Source: Candidatus Zhuqueibacterota bacterium (GTDB taxonomy: Bacteria; Zhuqueibacterota; Zhuqueibacteria; Residuimicrobiales; Residuimicrobiaceae). Taken from it: a stretch of DNA of 58,887 nt. Of this stretch, positions 3,105 to 43,433 are shown in pieces. Numbering within the stretch: the first letter of the stretch is position 1; each line of letters starts with the position of its first letter. The notes under the pieces were generated by a model, which was given only the letters and a program-made list of their open reading frames with translations, had not been told where the DNA came from and did not search any database. The stretch covers positions 1 to 58,887 of the forward strand of contig CAUJEL010000135.1 of NCBI GenBank assembly GCA_963169875.1, given 5' to 3'. The position numbers were made by a program, and so were the translations under genes.

Positions 3105-3272
3105 GAGTTATTCACCGCCGAGAACGCAGAGACGCGAAAAGAAAAGAAAAACATTAAAATAGCATCGGTAGCAACTTTTATGACTGAAATGAAATTCAAG
3201 TCAGAACTTTTTGGTAATTCCAACAACAACAGCTCGGCGGCTTTGGCGCGCTCGGCGGTTTATGAATAGAAC
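3105..3272 (+). repeat. Interspersed repeat family 1, copy A
   Basis: First of four copies of an intergenic element of about 165 bp. It starts TTATTCACCGCCGAG and ends GCTCGGCGGTTTATGAATAG, so CCGCCGAG at one end pairs with CTCGGCGG at the other. The interior carries ACTTTTATGACTGA, also present in copy B. This copy reads in the opposite orientation to copies B, C and D. It fills the gap between alx and the DUF4432 gene and codes for nothing recognisable. Confidence 0.85.
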
Positions 3273-24389: not shown

Positions 24390-27300
24390 TTATTTGATCA
24401 GCAGCATCTTGTGCGTCGCCGTGAACGAGCCCTCGCCTTCCGCCAGCGGTTTCGCCTCGATGCGGTAAAAGTACATGCCTGAAGGCATCCCGCGCCCCGT
24501 CTCATTTGTTGCATCCCAGAGGACGCGATGCGCGCCCGCCTGCTTGCGTTCATCGACCAACACACGCATGCACTGCCCCGTCACATCATAGACGGTCAGC
24601 CGCACCCTGGCCGCACGCGGCAGATCGTAGGAAATGGTGGTGCGGGGATTGAAGGGATTGGGATAATTGGCGTGCAGGGCGAACTGCTGCGGCGCCTCTG
24701 CGGGCTTTTGCGCGACCGACGTCGATAGCGGCACCGAAAATACAGACGTATTGCCATCCGCATCCGTGGCCGTGGCGGTGATGAACTTGCTGATCACAGA
24801 ACCGGACCAGGTGAACTGTCCGGACGCATCCGCGGTCACCGTCGCTTCATAATACCTGCCTTCCTCATCTGCGCCGGAGTAGATTTCCACCGTGGCAAAG
24901 GGCGCGGCGGTGCCCATCACCGGATTATTGCCGGTCAGCAGCGGCGGCTGGATATCGGCGTTGGCCTGATCCTGTATTAAAATACCCTGCATTTCATTCC
25001 CATAAATCTGGTTTCTGGTGATCGTATTATTCGCCGTACTGGGATTATACAGCAGTATGCCATTGGTCGGATGATAGGCGATGATGTTGTTGGGGCCGAT
25101 TTGCTGATGATGGGCGCCATTATGAATTCGGATACCCACATAACGGTTAGGCAAAGGCTGGATGCCGGTGATGTCGGTGCCTATATAATTCCCGGTAATT
25201 TGATTGTACTGAACATCGGACCCTTCGATGCTGATCCCGGTAGGATTGGCAGCGATGATATTGCGATCCGCCTCGGTCTCTCCACCCACGACATTGTGAC
25301 TGGGACCTCCGGAAAAGTAGATCCCTACGGTTTTGTTGCCCAAAGCCAGGGTTCCTGTGGCATCGGTGCCGATCAGGTTGCCGATGACCCGGTTGCTGTC
25401 GGCCTTGTCGCCAAAGAAATTGATGCCAATGCTGGTGCCGCTGATGACATTGCCCGGACCAATGGTGTTAGCGGAACAGGTCACACTGATATTGTAGGAC
25501 TTGTTGCCAAGGGTGTCCGTCCCCGACGCAGTAAGTCCGATGTAATTGCCAATCACCGCGTTGCCACGAGCCAGGCCGCTGATCCCGATGCCGATGTTCG
25601 ACAAGCCTGAAATCACATTGCGCTGCCCGGGCGCCGGTCCGCCAATGATATTGCCATGGCCTTCCTGAATGAAAATCCCGCCGCCGGAACGCGGCGTTCG
25701 TTCCCGGCCCGTCGCATCGATGCCGATATAGCAGCCGCTGATTTCACACTCAGTCCCAAAGATATACAGTTGTGCGTAATCAAAATTATGGATGGCCATT
25801 CCGCGGACTGCCAGATGGTCCCCGGAGAGGCCGATCCCGGCAGAGGAATAGGGGCAATCGCTGCCGTCCATGGCAATTTCGGGACCTGAGGGATTGCTAT
25901 CAAATCCCAGGAAAGCGGCCTGCGAGTGGCCATCGATGAGTAGTCCGCTTTGTGAAATATAATACCCTTCCAAAGGACGGATGGTCCAGACGCCTGTTTC
26001 CGCATCATAGCCGGCGTCGGTGAGCGGAATCTGAAAGACGACCGTGTCGGAGCCGGCATGAAACTGTGCTTCGAGTAATGCCTGACGCAGCGAACCCGGC
26101 CCATCATTGTTGGTGTTGGTCACCACATAACTGGTTGTGGTCGAAACGGGAACGGAAAACGGTGATGTATTGCCGGCCGCATCGGTGGCCGTGGCCGTCA
26201 CATAAGCGCCGTTGGCCGGGCCATTCCAGGAGAATTGACCGCTGCCATCTGCTGTCACCGTACCCAGCCAGGTTTCGCCCTGGGCATCGCGGCCGCAGAA
26301 AATCTCCACCGTGGCATGGGCCGCCGCCATGCCGCTGACCGGCTGCAACGTCGCCACGATTGGGGCGGGCATGTCGAGATTGCCGCCCAACAGGAGGATG
26401 CCGCCATTCACATTGCCATAAATGCTGTTCTGGGTGATCCGGTTCGAAGAGGACCATAAAATCCGGATGCCCGCGTCTGCATTGAAGGCGATGAGGTTCC
26501 CGGGTCCGAGGATGTTATCATGCGCCTCGCTGATGTTATGACTGACAAAAATGCCATCGAGCAAATTACCCAGATTCAGCGTGCCGTCGCGGTTGGTGCC
26601 GATGATATTGCTTGCAACCGTCGTGCTGCGCGCATCATCCAGAAGAATGCCCTCCCTGCCGTTGCCGCCGATCACATTTCCGTGCGCTGTGGTTGCGCCG
26701 CCAATCACGGTATGCACCGCACTGTTCACGGAGACACCGATATCACGGTTGCCGATCACGGCCGCACCGCTGACATCGACACCGATATGGTTGCCGATGA
26801 TTTGATTATATTCACTCTCTGCATCATAAATCTGAATGCCGTACTGATTGCCGCAAATATAGTTGCGCTCTTCATCGATGCTGCCGCCGACGATGGTGTG
26901 CGACGCGCCCTGACTGATCATGATGCCAAACCCGTGATTGCCCCAGTTGAGCGTCCCGGACGGATCCAGACCGATATAATTGCCGATCACCCTGTTGCTG
27001 TCGCATTTGGAGATGCGTATCCCATGATTGCTGTTGCCGGCAATGAGGTTGCCCGGGCCGATCGTATTACTGTTACACTTATCGTACAAGGTAACACCGG
27101 TCGAGTTGGCCAGGGTGTCGCTGCCGGCGCTGTTGACGCCAATATAGTTGTTTCGTATCATATTGTGGCACGCGCCATTGAACAGCTCGATGGCATCCCA
27201 GGTTAGTCCCGAGACGATATTGCGCTGGCCTGGCAAGGCGCCGCCGATCTCGTTGTAATCACCTTTTTCAATGGAAATGCCAATGCCCCCCAGCCGCTCG

Positions 27301-29906
27301 CTGTGCAGGCCGGTGTAATCGGTGCCAATATAGCAGCTGTAAACGTGATTTTCATGTCCCGTCATGTAAATCTGCACCGTGTTGAATCCTCGGATGGTCA
27401 ATCCGGTGACCACATTTCGCGAACTGCCAAGGGTCAATCCCTGTGCTGTCGACAGGGTTCCCTGAAGCACAATGACCGGATGGGCCGAAGTGAGTCCGAG
27501 ATATTTTTTTTGCGTGGTGCCATCGATGATGGTCTCATCATCCGTGATCTGGAGATCGGGAGATTCTACCCGGATGGTCCACATGCCCGTCCCAGGATCA
27601 TAGCCGGGATCCGACACCGGGATGTTAAAGTGAATGAGATCGCGTTCGGCATGCATATTGGCATCATGGATGGCCTGGCGCAATGAACCCGGCCCGATAT
27701 TATTTGTATTGGTGACCAGAATGGCTTCGGGAATTGTATCGGGTTCAGCGGCGGTGGCCAGCACCAGATCGCCCATGCTCTCGGCCGCCTCCCAGACGAA
27801 TCCGTACGGCCATTCGCCCGGATAGCCAGAGTGCTCGAAATAGTGATTGCCCGGATCGCTGATCCACAGGGAGGCGCCCAGGGTGGCGCCAGCTTTTGCC
27901 TTGATGGGGCTGATTTTGAAATCCAGACTCATTTCATATTGGACATGACCGCTCAAGGTGGTTATCGCCTTGACAATGCCGGTGGCGGCCCTGGCGGCAT
28001 CCGCGCCGAGGGAGGCAGGATAGGCTCCCCAGGCGCCCGCGAACAGGGCATTGGCTGTCGAAATCTGCAGAAATCCCTCCTTGCTGGGACTTGCGGCATC
28101 CCACCGGCCGCTATGATCGAGATCAAAGGCCAGATTGAAGGTGTTGGCAGGATCAACGGCCACATCATTGGGATCATCCACCGCAAGGTAAAGGTGGGTT
28201 GAATCATTTTTTACATAGAGCTGCACAGGTTGTGGCACAAATGGACAGGTGATCTCTATCATCGCCGCGTCGCTCCATTCAGCGGCGTTGATGACGCCGT
28301 CGATGGCGGGCGCCGACGTATTCCATGTACTGCGCAGCACGTGGCCCGAGTCGGAAGGCGTCGCCCGAACCCAGGCGGACGGTCCCTGGCTGTCGGGATC
28401 GTCGGCCTCAATGCGGTAAAGATAGGTTTGACCATTGATGGCTGTGAAATCGATATAGTCGCGCATGGTATAACCAGCCGCACCGCGCGCCGACAGATCG
28501 ACCGTGGCGATCTGGGTGATGGGCGCGCCGAGTCCGGTGCTGCGCCATATTTTATAGATCTTGGTTCGTTCTTTGCCGTAAAGATGATCCCACGATAGCG
28601 GCACGCGGTTATAAAAACCGCTGCCCGCGACCACATTATTGGGGACGCGGAGTCCGCGCCAGTTGCCGTAGACATCCGGGTTGCCGTTACGATCATCCTG
28701 CCAGACCGCCAATAGCAATCCCCTGCCGCTGATAGCCAGCGAGCCAAAGGTTTGCTGCCCCGGCGACTCGTTCACGACAAGGTGCTCCCCCACTTGCGCG
28801 CCAGCCGCGGTGAACATTTTCACATAGATATTGCTGTCACCTGTCTTTTCGCTTTCCCAAAGCACCGCATAGCCGGATCCGGGGCTGATGCCTACATCAG
28901 GACGCTGGTGCGGGCCGACGGGCTCGACGACCCCCAGGGCGCTGAGTATAAAATCGCCTTTGATGGTATTCCTGCTGGCGTCATACAGATGCCCATAGAC
29001 GTCCGAGGGCGAGCCATAACTCCAGCAAACAAAAAAGTGTCCGTTTGGCTGCAGGGCGATGGCGGGATCCCTGGGAAAAAGAGTTCCGCCGGGATGACTG
29101 CTCACTTTGAAATTGCCTCCGACTGAAGCGCCCGTGCTGTCGTAAACATGCGCAAAGATATAATACTGTGGCGGCGATTGATGGACATCACGCCCATCCT
29201 CCCAGACGATGACGAAACTGCCGTTGCGGCGTATGGCTACATCGGGCCGGTCTTGGGGTCCCGCGGTTTGAGAAGGAACCACAAAATTGCCACCCACCCT
29301 TTCACCCGCGCGATCGAAGCGCTGCGCGAATACATCACCTGCCATATCCGTACGGCGTCCCACCCAGGTGACGACAAACTCACCGCTGCCGTTCATGGCC
29401 ACCCGGGGACTGGCCGTTGCGCTGCTGACGTGCGCCCTGTCGTTCACCTTTATCCATGACGTCAGAGCGACGGCATTGGCGCCGTAAATGCGAGCGTAGA
29501 CATTGGCGGAGTCTTTTTTCTCCGTCCACACGACCACAAAATGGCCGAGATCGTCGATGGCAATATCCGGGGTCAATTGATCGCTGTTGGCGTCAAAGGG
29601 TGCCACAGCGAAATTTTTCTGCACCGGGATGCCGCGCTGGCCAAAACGCTGGCCATAGACACGCGGTTTTCCAGTACGGTTATCCTGCCAGCAACTGACT
29701 GCATAGTTGTTGGCGCTGATCGCGACGCGCGGTGCATATTGAACGGCTGTCCCGATATCGTCGTTGATGCGGCCATCCGCGGCCGCGCTTTGATTCGCAA
29801 GAGAAAGGGTGCCCTGATCGGCGAATACAAACAGCGGGATGGCCAGAATAACAAGAATTACAACAGCAACGGGTACTAACACGTCTTTCTTCGGGAAACG
29901 CCCCAT
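24390..29906 (-). CDS. Giant beta-helix surface protein with T9SS-type sorting domain
   Basis: This 1838-residue protein begins with a signal sequence. Residues about 45-415 form propeller-like repeats (GHFVVVWTE, GEFVVTWVG, GSFVIVWEDGRD). An Fn3-like segment and a DOMON/CBM9-like segment (TSAPAIDGVINAAEWSDA, about 530-715) follow. Two tandem modules then each start NTNN-GPGSLRQA (about 734 and 1264) and continue into right-handed beta-helix repeats (NxIGGN..., VIGNYIGLD) and an Ig-like segment. The C-terminus has NYPNPFNPRTTISYDL and ends KMLLIK, the pattern of T9SS type A sorting domains. The start at 29906 follows GGAGG by five bases; an ATG 12 bases earlier overlaps that site. It is a paralogue of the 39423-43433 protein with one module duplicated. 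A polysaccharide-binding or lyase-like role is inferred only. Confidence 0.88.
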   Translation of the reverse strand: MGRFPKKDVLVPVAVVILVILAIPLFVFADQGTLSLANQSAAADGRINDDIGTAVQYAPRVAISANNYAVSCWQDNRTGKPRVYGQRFGQRGIPVQKNFAVAPFDANSDQLTPDIAIDDLGHFVVVWTEKKDSANVYARIYGANAVALTSWIKVNDRAHVSSATASPRVAMNGSGEFVVTWVGRRTDMAGDVFAQRFDRAGERVGGNFVVPSQTAGPQDRPDVAIRRNGSFVIVWEDGRDVHQSPPQYYIFAHVYDSTGASVGGNFKVSSHPGGTLFPRDPAIALQPNGHFFVCWSYGSPSDVYGHLYDASRNTIKGDFILSALGVVEPVGPHQRPDVGISPGSGYAVLWESEKTGDSNIYVKMFTAAGAQVGEHLVVNESPGQQTFGSLAISGRGLLLAVWQDDRNGNPDVYGNWRGLRVPNNVVAGSGFYNRVPLSWDHLYGKERTKIYKIWRSTGLGAPITQIATVDLSARGAAGYTMRDYIDFTAINGQTYLYRIEADDPDSQGPSAWVRATPSDSGHVLRSTWNTSAPAIDGVINAAEWSDAAMIEITCPFVPQPVQLYVKNDSTHLYLAVDDPNDVAVDPANTFNLAFDLDHSGRWDAASPSKEGFLQISTANALFAGAWGAYPASLGADAARAATGIVKAITTLSGHVQYEMSLDFKISPIKAKAGATLGASLWISDPGNHYFEHSGYPGEWPYGFVWEAAESMGDLVLATAAEPDTIPEAILVTNTNNIGPGSLRQAIHDANMHAERDLIHFNIPVSDPGYDPGTGMWTIRVESPDLQITDDETIIDGTTQKKYLGLTSAHPVIVLQGTLSTAQGLTLGSSRNVVTGLTIRGFNTVQIYMTGHENHVYSCYIGTDYTGLHSERLGGIGISIEKGDYNEIGGALPGQRNIVSGLTWDAIELFNGACHNMIRNNYIGVNSAGSDTLANSTGVTLYDKCNSNTIGPGNLIAGNSNHGIRISKCDSNRVIGNYIGLDPSGTLNWGNHGFGIMISQGASHTIVGGSIDEERNYICGNQYGIQIYDAESEYNQIIGNHIGVDVSGAAVIGNRDIGVSVNSAVHTVIGGATTAHGNVIGGNGREGILLDDARSTTVASNIIGTNRDGTLNLGNLLDGIFVSHNISEAHDNILGPGNLIAFNADAGIRILWSSSNRITQNSIYGNVNGGILLLGGNLDMPAPIVATLQPVSGMAAAHATVEIFCGRDAQGETWLGTVTADGSGQFSWNGPANGAYVTATATDAAGNTSPFSVPVSTTTSYVVTNTNNDGPGSLRQALLEAQFHAGSDTVVFQIPLTDAGYDAETGVWTIRPLEGYYISQSGLLIDGHSQAAFLGFDSNPSGPEIAMDGSDCPYSSAGIGLSGDHLAVRGMAIHNFDYAQLYIFGTECEISGCYIGIDATGRERTPRSGGGIFIQEGHGNIIGGPAPGQRNVISGLSNIGIGISGLARGNAVIGNYIGLTASGTDTLGNKSYNISVTCSANTIGPGNVISGTSIGINFFGDKADSNRVIGNLIGTDATGTLALGNKTVGIYFSGGPSHNVVGGETEADRNIIAANPTGISIEGSDVQYNQITGNYIGTDITGIQPLPNRYVGIRIHNGAHHQQIGPNNIIAYHPTNGILLYNPSTANNTITRNQIYGNEMQGILIQDQANADIQPPLLTGNNPVMGTAAPFATVEIYSGADEEGRYYEATVTADASGQFTWSGSVISKFITATATDADGNTSVFSVPLSTSVAQKPAEAPQQFALHANYPNPFNPRTTISYDLPRAARVRLTVYDVTGQCMRVLVDERKQAGAHRVLWDATNETGRGMPSGMYFYRIEAKPLAEGEGSFTATHKMLLIK

Positions 29907-30013
29907 GTTGTCCTCCATTGAAAAGGATGAGTACCTATATGCATGTATCTGTTCGTTCTGCCCGGCCGGAAGGAAGGATGGTATCGGTGAGATTGTGGCA
30001 GGGATTCTATCCT

Positions 30014-30186
30014 GTTCTATTCATAAACCGCCGAGCGCGCCGAGGCCGCCGAGCTAATTTTATTATGATGATCGAACTAGTTTAGATTCAAATTTCATCT
30101 CAGTCATAAAAGTTGTTATCGATGCCATTTTTTGTTTTTCTTTACTTTGCGTACCTCTGCGTCCTCAGCGGTGAATAATTCAGGCT
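30014..30186 (-). repeat. Interspersed repeat family 1, copy B
   Basis: On the minus strand it starts CCTGAATTATTCACCGCTGAG and ends GCTCGGCGGTTTATGAATAG. The arms ACCGCTGAG and CTCGGCGGT pair with one G-U wobble where copy A has a C-G pair, which is compatible with a conserved RNA stem. The interior shares ACTTTTATGACTGA with copy A. It lies between the cytochrome gene and the giant beta-helix gene, both on the minus strand. Confidence 0.85.
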
Positions 30187-30432: not shown

Positions 30433-33081
30433 TTAAAAATCAAACTGGTTGCGCATCATGCGCAGCATGTTGTCGTGATGCACCGGATCCTGCATGGGCT
30501 TTTTATGACACACGGCGCAATCCTTGTCCGAGCCAATGGGATTTGAAGTGCCCATATACTGGCGCGGCTGCAGATTGTCGCGATACAGGCCCACCGGGTT
30601 ATCCGCCGGATAGAGCGCATGCGTGGCGCTGTGACACGCTTCGCAGCGGATGCCCGCATTATCCGTGCGCACCCGGTATAAATCCGCAAATCCCGGCGTC
30701 CACTTGTTAAAGCTGGCAATATCTTGCGGCGCATTGAAATCAACGTGACAGTTAAGACAGTCCGGCTGTTGCAGCCAGGGCGTGCGCGCATGCACCTCCG
30801 CTACAGATGCCACCTGATCCGATCGGAGATGACGCAACAGACGCCGGGCGCCCGGTTTGGCCTCCTCGCTGCGCAGCAGTCCCATGGCGTGTTCCTCGAG
30901 GGTGCCATGGCATTCGGCGCAGGTGACGCCGATCTCCTTGTGAAAATCGCGGGCGCACCGGGTCGCGCCATCGGGCTTGGCCGGATGGCACGAGGCGCAG
31001 GCTTCGGCGCCCTCCAGGTGCACATAGTTGGCATGCCAGCCATGCATGGCCGCGGAAAAATTCAAGCGCACGCCATCCCCGGGGGCATTCACCGCCGGAT
31101 CGGCGTGGCAGCTTTGACACAGAACCGGCTTGCCCTGTTTCGCGCTCTGCAGAAGCGCCGTACGGCTGTTGCGGTCGTGCGCTGACAGAATGTTCATCGC
31201 GGTCTCATCGGAAACCCCGGCGACCCCTTTTTTCCAACCGCCGCCGTGACAGGAGCGGCAACCCATTTCCGAAGAAACCGGCGCCACAACCATGGTAGTG
31301 GCCAAAACCCGGCCGCTGACGGCCTCTTGTGCCTGCAGCGTGAATTTGGGATAGGCATTGAAAGAGCCATCCCCGGCATACGGCGCAACCGGGATCTGTT
31401 CGGCGACAAAACTGGCAAACTCATCTTTGAACGCCATCCCGCCGCTCATTCCATTTCCCGCCAGGCCGACATTGGGCGCCAGTTCGACGCCAAAAGTAGT
31501 TTTAGCGTAATCCCAGAAAGGCATTTGACTGGCGGGATTTTCAAAACCTGGTTCCACTGCATAATGCAGGGTGACGCCCTCCGTCACCAGGGCCGGCGGA
31601 TCGCCGCGGCGGATGAGCTGCGCGTGCAGCGAATTGGCGGGCGGCAAAATCACAAACCAGGCATCACAATCGGTCATGCAGTGCATGCCGAGATCATTCC
31701 AGGCCAGCAGGATATATTCATCCGTGCGGCGGTCAAAGGCGGGGATGTTCTCGGTTCTTTTCTCCGGCAACGCCGGACTGCCGTTACTCTCTGCCTCTTT
31801 TTTATGCAACCCCTGAACGATATAAGCGGCCAGCGCTTCGCGCTCATCGGATGTGCCCACAATTCGGGGCATGTAGCTGTTGATTTTGCCCTGACCGTGC
31901 AAAAAGGAGATCATGCCCTGATCCGGAAAACTGGCCGTGCGCGGCAGGATGTCGTTGCGCACCCCGCCCACGGTGTGACAGGGCAGACATTGGATTTCAA
32001 AAAGCGTCTTGCCGGCTTGCATCTTGTTCCCGTCCGCCACTTCGTGATGCTGCGTCCACTTGGCATGGGCCAGCACCCCTTCCTCGTTGAGCCGCGCCTC
32101 ATCCGCCACCAGAATGGAGGTGCTGTACATGTAATCGCTGATGATGTACGGCTTGCGCGCGATCTCGCGCAGATATTCAAATCCGCCGTAAAAACCCAGA
32201 CCGATGAAGACCAGAAGGATTGCCAGCGCTTGCTGCAACCGTCGCGGCGATTTCAGCAGATAGTACAGCGCCAGCAGGAAAATGCCAACAACCGCAGCGG
32301 CGCCGATTTGCACAAACGGCGCGCTCTGCGGGTTGAGAGAGAACGCCACGTCGCGCGTTTCGACGGGGATGCTGTAATAGTACCAGATGCCGGTCACCGC
32401 CATCCACGGCAGGGCCAGCAGCAGCCAGCGGCTGCAGTAGCGCAGAATCGTAGTCCGCGTTTCGCTGTCGGGCAAACGCACGGCCGTGAAAATGCCAAAA
32501 AGCCCGGCGATCATGACGGCCACACCGGTGCGGAAAAAGGTGGAGGCAAAATAGGTCGGATTGAGAAACCCATGCCAGAAATTGCCCGTTTGCAGCCATT
32601 GGCCCGGCGTCAGCATGAAGGCCAGTATGCCGTTGATGACCACCAGGCTGAGCCAGGCGAACAGGGCGTAAAAGAAGGCGATGCGGAGGCGGTCCGTGCG
32701 CTGCAAATTTTGAAAATGATAGTGATAAATCAACAAGGCGATGATCTCGCCGAGGAAGAAAACCCATTCAATCGCCCAGCCAAAGACAAAGGTGTGTATC
32801 AGGGCGGACGTCGCCGCCGGCTGCACCAGGGCGATGACGAACCAGATGCCGACACCGGTGATGCCGCCAAAGACCATGGTGAGCAGCAGGAAAAACCAGG
32901 TGTGCTTGCGCACATAAAGATGTATATCGGGATTATTTCCGCGGAATCCTTTCCAATCCATCAACCAGATGAAGATGCCGCCGCCAACAGCCAGATGCGA
33001 TATGTAAGCGTGCAGAACGGCGATCAGGGCGATCATCGAACTGCCGCCAAACCAGGTCAGTTCCCAAATCGGATAGTTCAT
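30433..33081 (-). CDS. Cytochrome bd-like membrane domain fused to eight c-type haem sites
   Basis: Residues 1 to about 310 hold eight or nine membrane helices resembling cytochrome bd subunit I: VLHAYISHLAVGGG in helix 1 (His24 aligns with the CydA haem ligand His19), GGITGVGIWFV, AIEWVFFLGEIIA with two Glu, and ARKPY matching the GRQPW end of CydA. A monohaem cytochrome c domain follows (CLPCH, about residue 364). Next is a domain with AWNDLGMHCM (about 465-600), seen in other c-type cytochromes, and then seven more CxxCH sites (about 608, 654, 694, 719, 773, 812, 854). The C-terminal part probably faces the periplasm. It overlaps the upstream membrane-subunit gene by four bases (ATGA). The likely role is passing electrons from quinol to the haem chain or oxygen. 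The exact partner is unknown. Confidence 0.85.
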   Translation of the reverse strand: MNYPIWELTWFGGSSMIALIAVLHAYISHLAVGGGIFIWLMDWKGFRGNNPDIHLYVRKHTWFFLLLTMVFGGITGVGIWFVIALVQPAATSALIHTFVFGWAIEWVFFLGEIIALLIYHYHFQNLQRTDRLRIAFFYALFAWLSLVVINGILAFMLTPGQWLQTGNFWHGFLNPTYFASTFFRTGVAVMIAGLFGIFTAVRLPDSETRTTILRYCSRWLLLALPWMAVTGIWYYYSIPVETRDVAFSLNPQSAPFVQIGAAAVVGIFLLALYYLLKSPRRLQQALAILLVFIGLGFYGGFEYLREIARKPYIISDYMYSTSILVADEARLNEEGVLAHAKWTQHHEVADGNKMQAGKTLFEIQCLPCHTVGGVRNDILPRTASFPDQGMISFLHGQGKINSYMPRIVGTSDEREALAAYIVQGLHKKEAESNGSPALPEKRTENIPAFDRRTDEYILLAWNDLGMHCMTDCDAWFVILPPANSLHAQLIRRGDPPALVTEGVTLHYAVEPGFENPASQMPFWDYAKTTFGVELAPNVGLAGNGMSGGMAFKDEFASFVAEQIPVAPYAGDGSFNAYPKFTLQAQEAVSGRVLATTMVVAPVSSEMGCRSCHGGGWKKGVAGVSDETAMNILSAHDRNSRTALLQSAKQGKPVLCQSCHADPAVNAPGDGVRLNFSAAMHGWHANYVHLEGAEACASCHPAKPDGATRCARDFHKEIGVTCAECHGTLEEHAMGLLRSEEAKPGARRLLRHLRSDQVASVAEVHARTPWLQQPDCLNCHVDFNAPQDIASFNKWTPGFADLYRVRTDNAGIRCEACHSATHALYPADNPVGLYRDNLQPRQYMGTSNPIGSDKDCAVCHKKPMQDPVHHDNMLRMMRNQFDF

Positions 33082-34139
33082 GATTTTTCCCTCCTCTCTG
33101 CCGCAGCCACCATGATGCGCACCATATACCAGACCACTCCCAAACCAGCCGCCAGGATAATCAGAAAAAGGATCATGACATCGTATTGCGGTTTGAGCGT
33201 CAGTTCAGAGACTTTAAAAAACCGGCTGATGTAGAGATCGCGCACCGCCAGACGGCTGAGGGCCATGACCAGCATCAGAGCCAGCAGATGATAAAAGGTG
33301 GGCCAGAACTTGTCCCGAAACGCCATGATCAGAGCTCCCGCTGCAAGAGCCAGACCGAGCACCAGGAGGATGGTGTAGTAGAGATTGCGTCCCATGAAAG
33401 CCAGCATGAATTCGCGCGGCAGGGCGAGTAGAAACCAGATTCCGATGACCACCTGCACCGAGGTGGCGACGGCAAAGACGCGCAGACCTTTTTTGACGGC
33501 TCCGTCCGCCTCCGTACGGCCCTTTTTGCCGCGAAATTGCCACATCAGGCTGCTGAACAGTCCGGCGACGGCGATGGAGGCCAATACGAAATGCAGGTAG
33601 CGGGGCCACAGCGCGGGATCGGAAAGATTAAGAATCGTCCCCCCGCGCTGCACAAAATAGGCATCCCATTTCTCGGGCTGCAGCATCAGGGTCATGTTGT
33701 TGGTGTAGATGAAGCCAGTATAAAGGAAAATGCAGACCGCGAGGCCAATAGCGCTGCGGCCGAGCCAGCGCACGCCCGTGTGCGCGTGCACATAGGTGCT
33801 GTAATAGGCGATGATGAGCAGGGGGATGATGAGAAGCCAGTAAAAAGCCATGAGCACCGAACTGGCATAGATGAGATGACCATAGAGCACCTGCAGAAAA
33901 AGCAGGGGCGCGATACCGAAGGTGACGCCCAAGGCCACTGCGGATGGTATTTTTTTCACCAGCACGGCGACCACACAGTCCTCCTTCGGCTTGCGGCTGA
34001 ACAGGGCCAGCAGCGATCCGCCGAGGACTAGGTTGATGAACAGGATGTGCACAATAAAGAGCAGTACGCCGAGGATTTCAAATACCGGCCAGGGCGCCGG
34101 AATGGTTTCGGGATTGGGGACAAGAGGCATGGTATCCAT
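33078..34139 (-). CDS. Second bd-like membrane subunit of the cytochrome module
   Basis: This 353-residue protein has about nine membrane helices and no haem c site. Its first helix reads LLFIVHILFINLVLGGS, closely resembling VLHAYISHLAVGGG of the partner, and ends similarly. Later helices carry His and aromatic residues (YGHLIYASS, YSTYVHAHTG) suited to haem b ligands. It therefore looks like a homologous, shorter partner of the fused cytochrome, giving a heterodimer like CydA with a CydA-like second subunit. I place the start at ATG 34139, with AAAGGAGG about nine bases upstream; an earlier frame opening at 34178 lacks such a site. The last four bases overlap the cytochrome gene, so the two are made together. 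Confidence 0.78.
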   Translation of the reverse strand: MDTMPLVPNPETIPAPWPVFEILGVLLFIVHILFINLVLGGSLLALFSRKPKEDCVVAVLVKKIPSAVALGVTFGIAPLLFLQVLYGHLIYASSVLMAFYWLLIIPLLIIAYYSTYVHAHTGVRWLGRSAIGLAVCIFLYTGFIYTNNMTLMLQPEKWDAYFVQRGGTILNLSDPALWPRYLHFVLASIAVAGLFSSLMWQFRGKKGRTEADGAVKKGLRVFAVATSVQVVIGIWFLLALPREFMLAFMGRNLYYTILLVLGLALAAGALIMAFRDKFWPTFYHLLALMLVMALSRLAVRDLYISRFFKVSELTLKPQYDVMILFLIILAAGLGVVWYMVRIMVAAAERREKS

Positions 34140-34252
34140 GCATGAACCTCCTTTCCATCGGGGTGAGGAATTCAACAAATCGGGCGTGATTGTTTGCGTT
34201 CGTCTTCAGGCTGGAGGCGAAGAGCTCACTTCTTCGCAAACAGATGCAAGTC

Positions 34253-34289: not shown

Positions 34290-34368
34290 TTCCCGCCTGC
34301 AGCTGAAAATAGCCAAAGAAAAAAACAGAATCAAGCAAATAGTATAATTGCATATGCGGATGTGAATC

Positions 34369-34531
34369 TGTTTTATTCATAAAGCGCTGAGCGCGCCGAG
34401 CCGTTTTTATGAGGACGATCGAAAATTTTTTGATTGGAATTCCATCTCAGTCATCAAAGCGGCTATCGATGACAGTTTTATGTTTTTCTTTTCTTTGCGT
34501 ACCCCTGCGCCCCCTGGTGGTGAAAAATACC
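34369..34531 (-). repeat. Interspersed repeat family 1, copy C
   Basis: The most diverged copy. On the minus strand it runs from TTTTTCACCACCAGG through GTACGCAAAGAAAAGAAAAAC and TGACTGAGATGGAATT to GCTCAGCGCTTTATGAAT. The terminal pairing is weaker than in copies A and B. It separates two minus-strand genes, in the same orientation relative to transcription as copies A and B. Confidence 0.75.
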
Positions 34532-39165: not shown

Positions 39166-39422
39166 GCGACGTGTTATTTCCTCTTCATTTTGTGATGGAT
39201 GTCAAAAAAAGCCACCTGCATGCGGGCTATATTAAATCATGACTCAGGGGACCCATATCCTGAAACACCGCTGGAAGTATTTCATTATGCCACCGGCAAC
39301 CGCCCCCTGGCTGGGGTCATCCTGTTATTCCGTAACCCCACTTGTCCTCTTAACATTTCCACACACAGCCTGACTAAATCTGGACACTCATTTTGCCAGT
39401 CTCTTACAAAAAGGAGATGACG

Positions 39423-42400
39423 ATGATGAACCACCGCTGCATTTCATCCCGCCGTGCTGCTTTTTTCATGCTTCTCCTCAGCCTTCTGTCTCTGACAGCA
39501 TGGTGCATTGCTGAAGATCGCAAAATCAACGATGACACCGGCGCCGTGACGCAGAAAAATCCCGCCATGGCAGCCAGCTACAACGGTTATGGCATCGCCT
39601 GCTGGGAGGATTATCGCAACGGCAATGCGGACATCTATGGCCAGGTCTTCAATCAGAAAGGGCAATTGGTCGGTGCCAATTTCATGCTCAATGATGCGCC
39701 AGGCAGCGGTGTACAGGTGCGTCCGGCTGTGGCCGTGAACAGCCGCGGCCAGTTCGTCGTGGTCTGGGAGGACAGCGGCGATGGCGGCGACGTGGTCCTC
39801 TACGCGCGCTGGTTCGCCGCCAACATGAAACCGCTCGGCGACCGCGTCCGCATCAATTCCGTCGACGCCCGCGGCAGATTGCATGCAGCGGTGGCCATGG
39901 ACTATAATGGTAATGCCGTGGTGTGCTGGGCTGACGGCCGCGAACGCGAGACCCTGGAAATCTACATGCAGCGCTACGACCATCAAGGCCGTCCCATTGG
40001 CGGCAACCGCCGCGTCAATGATGCCATAAGCGGCATTCAGCAATTTCCCGCCGTTGCCATGAATGCGCACGGCGAGTTCGTCATTACTTGGACGGATGGC
40101 CGCACTGCGCCTGGTTACGGGATTTATGGCCAGCGCTTCTCCGCGTTCGGTACCCCGCTGGGCACAAACCGTCTGTTGAGCCCCGGCAGCGAACAATATA
40201 ATGCGCCGGCTATTCCTTCCGTGGCTTTGCAGAAAAATGGCGATTTCATGACAGCCTGGCATTATGGGTCGCCACCGCAGGTGTACGGCTGCTTCATTTC
40301 CAATGCGGACTCTACGGCCAATAAAACGTTTTGTCTGGACAATGCCGGCGGCGGTGCGACGTTCATCGCCGGATTGAATCCGTGCGTCTATCCACGCCTC
40401 GAAAACGGATTTGTGATCTCTTTCGCAGCCTCTCCCAGTTTTGCCGGCAGCCACGTCTATACGCAGTCATTCGATCCACAGGGCAATCCGGAAGTGGATC
40501 CCATTCAGTGTAGTGAATCCGCCGGCAGCAAAGGGCTCAACTGCCTGGTCATCGGCTGGCAGGGCCTGTTCACGGTCATCTGGGAACAGACCACCGGCAC
40601 CGACAAGGATATTTATGGCCAGTGCCGTGGCGCGCAGATTCCGATGAATGTCACCGCCGGCACCCAATTTAACAGCCGCGTGCCCATCAGCTGGGATCCG
40701 CCCTTTGGCATGGAGAGCGCCAAAAAATATTCCATCCACCGCAGCACCGACATGAATGGCCCCTTTTCGCCGCTGGCCTCCATCAACCTGACGGATCGCG
40801 GCGCAGCCGGCGCGCTCATGCGCGATTATCTCGACGCCGCCATCACACCCGGGACGACCTATTACTATCGGGTGACTTGCGATGAAACCGGCGCGGACGG
40901 TCCCTCCCAGATTGTCAAAGCGACGCCCATGCCGGGCAGCCAAAGCCATACACTCCATTCAGCCTGGACTGACCGGGCGCCCACCATCGATGGCGTCATC
41001 AAGGAGGCGGAATGGAACGATGCGCGCAAAATCAACATCGCCGTGCCCTGCAGCGACCATCCCGTGGAACTCTATGTAAAAAATAACGGCACAAAACTGT
41101 TCATCGCAGCGGATGATCCTTTGGACACCATTATCGATCCCGTCAATCAGCTCTGCATGCTCTCGGATCTGGATTACAACCATCTATGGCCGGCAGGGCC
41201 GTCCAGCAATGAAGGTTTGTTATATATAAACTCGACAGGCGCCCGTTTCATAGGCTATTATGGAACCTACCCTGATCATCTGGGCGCCAATGGCGCCGCC
41301 TTGGCGGCGAATGTGACCTCGCTAATTACCACCAACAGCGGTCATGTGCAGTACGAAGCAGCCATAACCATTGCCCACACGGCCGGCCAGGAGATCGGCT
41401 TTGCGGCATGGGTCCAGGATCCGGGCAGCATCTACGCCATGCACTATGGCTGGGCGGGCGAATGGCCCTATGGTCATCTCTGGGAATGCGCCAGCGCGCT
41501 GGGCAAATTGATTTTTGCCGGCCCGCAGGCAGCACCGGGCAAATATATCGTGTCCAATACCAACGACAGCGGTCCCGGTTCCCTGCGCCAGGCCATGGAG
41601 GATGCGGACAGCCATGCCGGTCCGGACAGCGTCCTGTTCAACATCCCCGCCAGCGATCCCAATTATGATGCTGCCAGCGGCGTCTGGACCATCAAACCGG
41701 TTTCGGTATTACGCCTCACCAACCAGGCTACGGTTGTAGACGGCACCTCGCAAGCGCGTTTCATCGGCACAGACACCAATCCGCTCGGACCGGAAATTGC
41801 CATCGATGGTTCTGAATCACCCAATCCTTATGGCATCACCATCTCCGGCTCGCATAATCATGTCAAGGGTCTTTGCGTCTATAGCTTTACGCAAACGCTC
41901 TTTTCAATCTCGGACGACAGCAACCGCGTCACCGGCTGCTATGTGGGCACTGATGCTACCGGCATGCGCCGCATGGACAAACAAGGCTATGGTATCACGG
42001 TCATGTACTGCGGTTTCAATATCATCGGCGGGATGGGACGGGACCGCAACGTAATCAGCGGTCTCCAAGCGAATGGTATCTTTCTCGGTCCAGGCGCGAA
42101 TGATAACCAGGTTGTTGGCAATTATATCGGTATCAACAGCGCCGGCAGTGACACCATCAAAAATGCAAATGGTATTCTCATCTCGGCCACAAGCAGTCAC
42201 AATACCCTTGGGCCCGGGAATGTGGTGAGCGGGAACAAAAACTATGGCATCATTTTAGTCTCTGCGACCTGCGACAGCAACCGCGTCATCGGCAATTTCA
42301 TCGGCACGGATGCGAATGGCGTGGTGGCCTTGGGCAATGGCGCGCATGGGATTTATATCGAAGAAGCGGGGTTTAACGTCATCGGCGGCGATGAGGCCCA

Positions 42401-43433
42401 TGAACGCAATATCATCTCAGGAAACAACGCAAATGGCGTCTATATCGTGCGGGGCTCCGCCCAGGGCAACGTGATTCAGGGCAACTATATCGGCGTCAAT
42501 GCCTCCGGCAATGCCACACTGCCCAACGGAACGCACGGCATCTATTTGATTCATGGCGCTGACCACACGCAGATCGGTGGAGAAAATCCGGGAGAGGGCA
42601 ACACTATTTCCGGCAATGTCGGCGAAGGCATCATGCTGGAAAGCAGCAACGCCAACCAGGTCCGTGGCAATTTTATCGGCACCGACTCAGCGGGCGAACT
42701 TGATTTGGGGAATGGCGGCAACGGCCTCTTTTTCTATGGGACTTCCTGCAATAATATCATTGGCAGCAACAATGTCATCGCCTATAATCAGCAAAATGGC
42801 ATTATGGTACAGAGCGGCAACGCGGATTATAACCAGATCACGCAGAATCGCATCTATCAGAACGCTGGCGGCGGCATCCGGCTGGGCAGCGGCGCCAATC
42901 AGGACGTCCCTGCTCCGCACCTTACAGAAATGAACCCGCTGCGCGGAGAGTCCTTCCCTTATGCGACCGTTGAAATTTACGCCACCAGCGGCTCGCAAGC
43001 GGACACCTATGAAGGTACCACCATTGCAGGCTCTGACGGCCGTTTCAGTTGGAATGGCAGCGTCTCCGGCCATTTTGTCACCGCCACGGCCACGGATGCG
43101 GCGTATAACACCTCCGCACTGTCACAGCCTCTCGAGACTGCCATCGCGGAAAAACCCATCACCCAACCGTTGGCATTCAAACTGGAACAGAATTATCCCA
43201 ATCCGTTCAACCCGAGTACGCAAATTCGCTTCTGTGTCCAGGAGCGCTGCCGGGTGCAGTTGACGCTTTACGATCTCATGGGCCGGCAGATCGCCACACT
43301 GGCCGATCAGCTCTACGCACCCGGCTGGCATGTGAAGAGCGTCGCCCTGAGTGCGTATGCTTCGGGCGTCTATTTTTATCGCATCCGCATGAAAGATTTT
43401 AATGAGTGCAAGAAGATGATATTGGTCAAATAA
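39423..43433 (+). CDS. Beta-helix surface protein with T9SS-type sorting domain
   Basis: This 1336-residue exported protein has the same domain order as the 24390-29906 protein but with only one beta-helix module. After the signal peptide (ending near WCIA) come propeller-like repeats (GQFVVVWEDSGDG, GEFVITWTDGR), an Fn3-like segment, a CBM9/DOMON-like segment (APTIDGVIKEAEWNDA), then NTNDSGPGSLRQAMEDA and parallel beta-helix repeats (NYIGINSAGS, GNFIGTDANG). An Ig-like segment and the C-terminal NYPNPFNPSTQI...KMILVK sorting domain end it. AGGAG at 39411-39415 favours ATG 39423; two further ATGs (39417, 39426) are in frame. A sugar-binding or scaffold role on the cell surface is inferred. 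Confidence 0.88.
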   Translation: MMNHRCISSRRAAFFMLLLSLLSLTAWCIAEDRKINDDTGAVTQKNPAMAASYNGYGIACWEDYRNGNADIYGQVFNQKGQLVGANFMLNDAPGSGVQVRPAVAVNSRGQFVVVWEDSGDGGDVVLYARWFAANMKPLGDRVRINSVDARGRLHAAVAMDYNGNAVVCWADGRERETLEIYMQRYDHQGRPIGGNRRVNDAISGIQQFPAVAMNAHGEFVITWTDGRTAPGYGIYGQRFSAFGTPLGTNRLLSPGSEQYNAPAIPSVALQKNGDFMTAWHYGSPPQVYGCFISNADSTANKTFCLDNAGGGATFIAGLNPCVYPRLENGFVISFAASPSFAGSHVYTQSFDPQGNPEVDPIQCSESAGSKGLNCLVIGWQGLFTVIWEQTTGTDKDIYGQCRGAQIPMNVTAGTQFNSRVPISWDPPFGMESAKKYSIHRSTDMNGPFSPLASINLTDRGAAGALMRDYLDAAITPGTTYYYRVTCDETGADGPSQIVKATPMPGSQSHTLHSAWTDRAPTIDGVIKEAEWNDARKINIAVPCSDHPVELYVKNNGTKLFIAADDPLDTIIDPVNQLCMLSDLDYNHLWPAGPSSNEGLLYINSTGARFIGYYGTYPDHLGANGAALAANVTSLITTNSGHVQYEAAITIAHTAGQEIGFAAWVQDPGSIYAMHYGWAGEWPYGHLWECASALGKLIFAGPQAAPGKYIVSNTNDSGPGSLRQAMEDADSHAGPDSVLFNIPASDPNYDAASGVWTIKPVSVLRLTNQATVVDGTSQARFIGTDTNPLGPEIAIDGSESPNPYGITISGSHNHVKGLCVYSFTQTLFSISDDSNRVTGCYVGTDATGMRRMDKQGYGITVMYCGFNIIGGMGRDRNVISGLQANGIFLGPGANDNQVVGNYIGINSAGSDTIKNANGILISATSSHNTLGPGNVVSGNKNYGIILVSATCDSNRVIGNFIGTDANGVVALGNGAHGIYIEEAGFNVIGGDEAHERNIISGNNANGVYIVRGSAQGNVIQGNYIGVNASGNATLPNGTHGIYLIHGADHTQIGGENPGEGNTISGNVGEGIMLESSNANQVRGNFIGTDSAGELDLGNGGNGLFFYGTSCNNIIGSNNVIAYNQQNGIMVQSGNADYNQITQNRIYQNAGGGIRLGSGANQDVPAPHLTEMNPLRGESFPYATVEIYATSGSQADTYEGTTIAGSDGRFSWNGSVSGHFVTATATDAAYNTSALSQPLETAIAEKPITQPLAFKLEQNYPNPFNPSTQIRFCVQERCRVQLTLYDLMGRQIATLADQLYAPGWHVKSVALSAYASGVYFYRIRMKDFNECKKMILVK

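What the first reader, a model, noticed from the sequence alone, without database searches (positions are those of the whole stretch)
30433..34139. Two-gene quinol-type module: bd-like membrane domain fused to eight c-type haems
One 882-residue protein combines a CydA-like membrane domain (His in helix 1, AIEW...GE helix, ARKPY end), a monohaem cytochrome c domain, an AWNDLGMHCM domain and seven further CxxCH sites. Its coupled partner is a shorter homologous membrane protein without haem c. Known cytochrome bd oxidases have a long Q-loop subunit and a smaller second subunit. Here the subunit is shortened and carries a multihaem tail, so electrons may go to a periplasmic or outer acceptor instead of, or besides, oxygen. 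The architecture could be an uncharacterised respiratory complex.
Basis: partly seen in the sequence, partly recalled or inferred. Interest (0 to 1): 0.75.

Follow-up and report, generated by a model that had tools for sequence, protein, structure and literature searches.

The report
Oxygen-reductase-like membrane protein with octahaem tail
Two neighbouring genes appear to encode an oxygen-consuming membrane enzyme related to cytochrome bd that has lost the usual site for its quinol fuel and instead carries a built-in chain of eight haems outside the membrane, so it probably takes electrons from outside the inner membrane; if shown, it would be a bd enzyme not fed by quinol, of which none had been characterised as of a 2021 review.

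Summary
A translationally coupled gene pair encodes P0002 (353 aa, no haem c) and P0001 (882 aa: eight-helix membrane domain, one class-I cytochrome c, a beta domain with AWNDLGMHC, seven more CxxCH). The pair is conserved across many bacterial phyla with all eight motifs.

The membrane domain belongs to the cytochrome bd superfamily (profile hit to CydA 5DOQ, E 8e-11; Foldseek top hits all bd subunits). It keeps the active-site residues of E. coli CydA (H19, E99, E107, E445 equivalents) but lacks the Q-loop and has no conserved His or Met in helices 5-8, so no b558. P0002 is a paralogue keeping two invariant His and a Met. The tail carries exactly seven invariant distal His for its seven haems.

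Best reading: a bd-type O2 reductase fed from the periplasm through its own haem wire (inward flow), not quinol-to-acceptor. Four Nitrospirota copies sit beside an O2-sensor ODP-MCP pair. Non-quinol bd families are already proposed (OR-C/OR-N, Murali 2021, not readable here); octahaem members form one clade sister to dihaem forms. Verdict: new variant of a known kind, function unproven; whether the fusion was already catalogued could not be checked.

The parts
33078..34139 (-). P0002: partner subunit A-prime, 353 aa, about 9 TM helices, no haem c; invariant H31, H183, M292
   Evidence: no Pfam family; AF2 pTM 0.86; top 20 Foldseek matches are all bd subunits, best E 2e-3
34147..34154 (-). Shine-Dalgarno AAAGGAGG, 7 nt before the P0002 start
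   Evidence: sequence
33078..33081 (-). ATGA overlap: stop of P0002 and start of P0001 (translational coupling)
30433..33081 (-). P0001: 882-aa catalytic subunit with octahaem tail (stop included)
32122..33081 (-). P0001 residues 1-320: bd-superfamily membrane domain, 8 TM, N and C ends periplasmic by positive-inside rule; H24, E105, E112, E306 = E. coli CydA H19, E99, E107, E445
31798..32049 (-). P0001 residues 345-428: monohaem class-I cytochrome c, CLPCH 365-369, distal Met M404 invariant
   Evidence: Pfam PF13442 E 1.5e-7
31279..31740 (-). P0001 residues 448-601: beta-rich AWNDLGMHC domain, no Pfam family
30436..31278 (-). P0001 residues 602-882: heptahaem cytochrome, 7 CxxCH and 7 invariant distal His (635, 680, 683, 714, 821, 868, 869)

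Best explanation
P0001-P0002 form a heterodimeric bd-type oxygen reductase of the non-quinol branch of the cytochrome bd superfamily. P0001 holds the two-haem O2-reducing site (H24, E105, E306) and the cytoplasmic proton path (E112). Quinol oxidation has been lost with the Q-loop and haem b558. Electrons enter from the periplasmic side: a donor docks on the beta domain/heptahaem wire, electrons pass along seven bis-His haems to the His/Met haem c fixed at the outer face of the membrane, then into the active site. P0002 is a catalytically degenerate CydA paralogue (A-prime, in place of CydB) that probably holds one further b haem through its invariant H31/H183/M292. Electrons from outside and protons from inside would make O2 reduction electrogenic. 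Physiological use: microaerobic respiration or O2 scavenging by anaerobes and facultative anaerobes. Shown: domain make-up, superfamily membership, which residues are kept or lost, ligand counts, conservation. Inferred: complex formation, haem content, direction of flow, O2 as substrate, donor.
For: Superfamily: A3 profile hits 5DOQ_A (CydA) E 8e-11; Foldseek top 19 are bd CydA/CydB, 5doq_A E 2e-6; the Thermodesulfobacterium orthologue passes the PF01654 cut-off. Residues: H19/E99/E107/E445 equivalents kept, H186/M393/K252/E257 gone; no His/Met conserved in TM5-8. Literature: haem d ligand H19 or E99, E107 in the proton path, only one of three bd families has a quinol site (PMC8509429). Topology: positive charges on the four cytoplasmic loops put the C-terminus outside. 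Seven invariant distal His for seven haems, invariant Met for the eighth. Monohaem and dihaem relatives share the same core, so haem c next to the core looks ancestral and the heptahaem an addition. Same tail independently placed on the A-prime partner of another bd-like pair in G031. Context: in four Nitrospirota loci the module is followed by ODP-MCP-GGDEF/EAL; ODP is an O2 sensor coupled to an MCP without sensing domain (PMC7666581). Own genome has cytochrome c maturation genes.
Against: No enzymology of any member was found. Haem placement was not modelled and the heterodimer was not predicted. Context beyond the pair is not conserved outside Nitrospirota, so donor and acceptor are open. 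The window genome also has a canonical CydA and a haem-copper oxidase, so the role may be a side path. One relative (L143) lacks the tail and one (L172) has no adjacent partner, so neither is strictly essential.
Confidence: 0.65

Rival explanations
1. Outward flow: the membrane pair oxidises quinol at a new site and the octahaem tail passes electrons to a periplasmic or outer acceptor.
For: Multihaem tails on membrane quinol dehydrogenases are common in general (established knowledge); P0002 keeps H31, H183, M292 and could hold an electron-transfer haem; standalone forms of the tail look exported, one with a sorting-like C-terminus.
Against: Q-loop and quinol residues deleted, no conserved His/Met in TM5-8 of P0001; the whole O2 active-site set is retained for no obvious reason in a pure quinol dehydrogenase; relatives with only one or two c haems share the same core; O2-sensor neighbours.
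Confidence: 0.12
2. Same inward wiring, but the substrate at the bd-like site is not mainly O2 (for example nitric oxide): a detoxifying reductase.
For: Many hosts are anaerobes or sulfate reducers (titles); bd enzymes bind NO at haem d (PMC8509429).
Against: Nothing recurrent in the neighbourhoods points to nitrogen oxides; bd enzymes are best known as O2 reductases; ODP context.
Confidence: 0.15
3. A non-turnover redox sensor or electron-storage protein.
For: Linked to signalling genes in Nitrospirota.
Against: Catalytic and proton-path Glu/His are invariant in 28 sequences; signalling link confined to one phylum.
Confidence: 0.04

Closest known systems
Canonical cytochrome bd quinol oxidase (CydAB, qOR family)
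   Same: Membrane fold, H19/E99/E107/E445 equivalents, GRQPW-like ARKPY loop after TM8
   Different: No Q-loop, no b558 ligands, no TM9 in P0001, CydA-like paralogue instead of CydB, eight c haems
Non-quinol bd families OR-C and OR-N (Murali, Gennis, Hemp 2021; known here only through citing papers)
   Same: Two-haem core without quinol site, proposed cytochrome c donors, CydA/CydA-prime pairs; c-type haem domain at the CydA C-terminus (the latter from memory for OR-C)
   Different: Octahaem tail with AWNDLGMHC domain; whether an OR-C subfamily with this tail is already catalogued could not be checked
CydAA-prime of Archaea (Caldivirga)
   Same: Two CydA paralogues as the heterodimer
   Different: The archaeal enzyme is a quinol oxidase without haem c (recalled from the abstract; not tested)
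bd-like oxidase of Nitrospina/Nitrospira/Kuenenia (PMC3578206)
   Same: CydA-like haem ligands kept, quinol-binding residues gone
   Different: 14 TM helices in one protein, extra helices in place of the Q-loop, no octahaem tail
cbb3 oxidase (fused CcoNOP of Nitrospina, PMC3578206)
   Same: O2 reductase with its own haem c domains
   Different: Haem-copper superfamily, unrelated fold; analogy only

Membership tests
cytochrome bd superfamily | CydA-like fold and sequence profile | tested here: met
   P0001 itself misses PF01654
cytochrome bd superfamily | ligands of the two active-site haems (H19, E99, E445) and E107 of the proton path | tested here: met
   H24, E105, E306, E112 invariant
cytochrome bd superfamily | actual O2 reduction | not testable with these tools
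   needs protein
qOR (quinol) family | Q-loop with K252/E257 between TM6 and TM7 | tested here: not met
   deleted in all members aligned
qOR (quinol) family | b558 ligands H186 and M393 | tested here: not met
   no conserved His/Met in TM5-8
OR-C family of Murali 2021 | falls in the OR-C clade / hits the OR-C HMM | not tested
   reference HMMs and paper not held; our tree shows a c-haem clade far from qOR
OR-C family of Murali 2021 | haem c domain at the CydA C-terminus, no quinol site (definition partly from memory) | tested here: met
CydAA-prime type pair | second subunit is a CydA paralogue | tested here: met
   hhalign E 1.7e-5, bridging pairs L046-L048; fold match only marginal, E 2e-3
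CydAA-prime type pair | the two proteins form one complex | not testable with these tools
   heterodimer not predicted; adjacency and coupling only

The most novel reading that the evidence does not exclude
A bd-type oxygen reductase that draws electrons from outer-membrane or extracellular carriers through its own eight-haem wire, with the third (b-type) haem moved from the catalytic subunit to the paralogous partner (H31/H183/M292): a non-quinol bd oxidase with relocated electron entry.
Probability: 0.25. Interest if true: 0.75.

Novelty: new variant of a known kind. Interest (0 to 1): 0.55.

Why it matters
A 2021 review states that all biochemically characterised bd enzymes are quinol oxidases and that one using another donor still has to be obtained (PMC8509429). 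This module is a compact, two-gene, widely conserved candidate with an explicit wiring diagram, present in a cultured species (Thermodesulfobacterium hveragerdense). It would show how anaerobes burn O2 with periplasmic electrons. Related monohaem forms occur in many Desulfobacterota (39 of 198 sampled genomes have some member). Cable bacteria, where only lone CydA homologues are reported (PMC10030654), are worth checking for them; this was not done here.

Tried and rejected
Quinol-type reading: rejected on the missing Q-loop and b558 ligands. Assembly artefact or chance fusion: rejected, same fusion on large single contigs (G172, G135, G267; G355 and G377) and across phyla. P0002 as CydB: not favoured; hhalign relates it to the P0001 membrane domain and bridging pairs link both to CydA, though the fold search matches CydA and CydB about equally. 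Tail split into a separate gene in L143: rejected, ordinary stop and no tail remnant nearby. Pfam for the beta domain: nothing; no credible structural match for it in the PDB search. Sequence search of P0002 in the PDB: nothing meaningful. Reading Murali 2021: not held. Haem-ligand numbering in two other papers: not found.

Full report
Observation. The two genes are present as described. P0002 (window 33078-34139, minus) and P0001 (30433-33081, minus) overlap by ATGA and each has a clear Shine-Dalgarno. P0001 has CxxCH at 365, 608, 655, 695, 721, 775, 813 and 855. A scan of GTDB genomes found 28 relatives, 44-77% identical; 27 are recovered over most of their length and one (L025) begins at a contig edge. 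They come from records titled KSB1, Calditrichaeota, Bacteroidetes, Ignavibacteria, Kapabacteria, Glassbacteria, Gemmatimonadales, Verrucomicrobia, Nitrospiraceae/Thermodesulfovibrio, Deltaproteobacteria, Desulfohalobiaceae and the cultured Thermodesulfobacterium hveragerdense DSM 12571. In every locus not cut by a contig end the P0002 homologue lies directly upstream; P0001 homologues carry 8 CxxCH and P0002 homologues none. The unit is otherwise free-standing: no other neighbour family recurs in more than 6 of 29 loci.

Membrane domain. P0001 alone misses the Pfam CydA model, but the profile of 20 membrane domains hits G. thermodenitrificans CydA 5DOQ_A at E 8e-11, the T. hveragerdense orthologue passes the PF01654 cut-off (36 against 26.2 bits), and Foldseek with the AF2 model (pLDDT 80, pTM 0.71) returns bd subunits as its first 19 matches, 5doq_A at E 2e-6. 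An alignment with E. coli CydA and 12 CydA from the phylum shows H24, E105, E112, E306 of P0001 at the places of H19, E99, E107, E445. The place of H186 is Phe followed by an invariant Arg (R184); M393 and the Q-loop residues K252 and E257 have no counterpart. Independently of alignment with CydA, no His or Met is conserved in helices 5-8, and the H186-E445 span is 123 residues against 192-203 in short-loop CydA and 259 in E. coli. Roles of these residues: H19 or E99 as haem d ligand and E107 in the proton path are from PMC8509429; H186/M393 for b558, E445 for b595 and K252/E257 for quinol are established knowledge, not re-read here.

Topology. AF2 gives eight TM helices; positive charges concentrate in the loops between helices 1-2, 3-4, 5-6 and 7-8, so both ends lie outside and the tail starts right after the periplasmic ARKPY loop. 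The haem c domain is thus fixed at the side where the bd active-site haems lie (inference from bd structures).

Tail. Residues 345-428 form a class-I cytochrome c with invariant M404. Residues 448-601 are a beta-rich domain (AWNDLGMHC) with no Pfam family. Residues 602-882 hold seven CxxCH; exactly seven further His are invariant in all sequences that reach them (H635, 680, 683, 714, 821, 868, 869), with H731 in 93%. This fits seven bis-His haems and one His/Met haem. The tail module also occurs elsewhere: on the A-prime subunit of a different bd-like pair in G031 (contig-truncated), as an apparently exported pentahaem protein with a sorting-like C-terminus in G035, and as several standalone proteins in Nitrospirota. 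Reuse of the same tail on either subunit of bd-like pairs supports a functional link between the two modules.

Partner. P0002 has no Pfam family. Its model (pTM 0.86) matches bd subunits first, but only at E 2e-3 or worse and to CydA and CydB about equally. Profile comparison with the P0001 membrane domain gives E 1.7e-5, and two-gene pairs L046-L048 are hit by both profiles and by PF01654, so it is best read as a CydA paralogue. E99, E107, E445 and M393 equivalents are lost, but H31 (=H19), H183 (=H186) and M292 are invariant in 16 of 16 partners from octa-, di-, monohaem and OR-N-like pairs. I read this as a possible relocated electron-transfer haem; no structure supports it yet.

Phylogeny and distribution. 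In a tree of 78 membrane domains all octahaem proteins fall in one clade (97/91) that also contains one tail-less member (L143), sister to a dihaem clade (98/91), inside a c-haem clade well apart from qOR CydA (branches between the deepest groups are long and their order is unsure). Sampling: 19 of 82 genomes in the own phylum, 39 of 198 in the phylum of T. hveragerdense and 49 of 118 in the Nitrospirota sample (full-length profile, so tail-only and distant OR-N-like hits included) carry some related protein; full-length octahaem forms are a minority in each (5, about 8 and about 8).

Context. In the Nitrospirota loci L014, L016, L018, L028 the pair is followed by an ODP protein (PF19583, E 2e-74 in L014), a small MCP and a PAS-GGDEF-EAL protein. 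ODP is an O2 sensor for chemotaxis in Treponema denticola, genetically coupled to an MCP without sensing module (PMC7666581). This is the only contextual pointer to O2. The own genome encodes a canonical CydA, a haem-copper oxidase and cytochrome c maturation proteins.

Mechanism. Shown: domains, conservation, residue loss and retention, ligand counts. Inferred: inward electron flow periplasm -> heptahaem -> His/Met haem c -> bd site -> O2, protons from the cytoplasm, hence charge separation. The substrate could be other than O2; the donor is unknown.

Known or new. Non-quinol bd families (OR-C, OR-N) were proposed by Murali et al. 2021, cited; a 2021 review says none had been characterised biochemically. 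I recall, but could not verify, that OR-C proteins carry haem c domains. So the kind is known by sequence; the octahaem tail, its seven-His ligand set and the conserved A-prime ligands are the new points, subject to that unread paper. Exceptions seen: L143 without the tail, L172 without an adjacent partner.

Noticed in passing
window 30012-30164 and 34368-34512; also 3250-3267: A dispersed repeat of about 130-150 bp (GCGCTCGGCGGTTTATGAAT...) lies on both sides of the two-gene module in the same orientation, with part of it again near 3250.
   Followed up: partly
window 24390-29918 (-) and 39393-43433 (+): Two very long related secreted proteins with repetitive sequence and a YPNPFNP sorting-like C-terminus flank the region.
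   Followed up: no
L106 3938-6031 (-) and L108 3230-5038 (-): 600-700-residue CydA-like proteins that, in the one aligned (L108), lack the E99 and E445 equivalents, each followed by dihaem, monohaem and dihaem cytochrome genes: another unassigned bd-like cluster.
   Followed up: no
L175 1345-7072 and L176 629-6996: Bd-like A/A-prime pairs in the phylum of T. hveragerdense next to separate dihaem and 4-7-haem cytochromes, an unfused counterpart of the octahaem arrangement.
   Followed up: partly
L177 3001-6101; L174 3720-7114: Monohaem bd-like pairs lie beside what look by eye like a peroxiredoxin-type gene (L177) and a CRP-type regulator (L174), fitting O2 defence (not checked by profile).
   Followed up: no
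L100 2194-3693 (-): Standalone AWNDLGMHC-pentahaem protein with signal-like start and YPNPFN sorting-like C-terminus, possibly at the cell surface.
   Followed up: partly
L101 2-1813 (-): A-prime-type bd subunit fused to the AWNDLGMHC domain, cut by the contig end: tail moved to the other subunit.
   Followed up: partly
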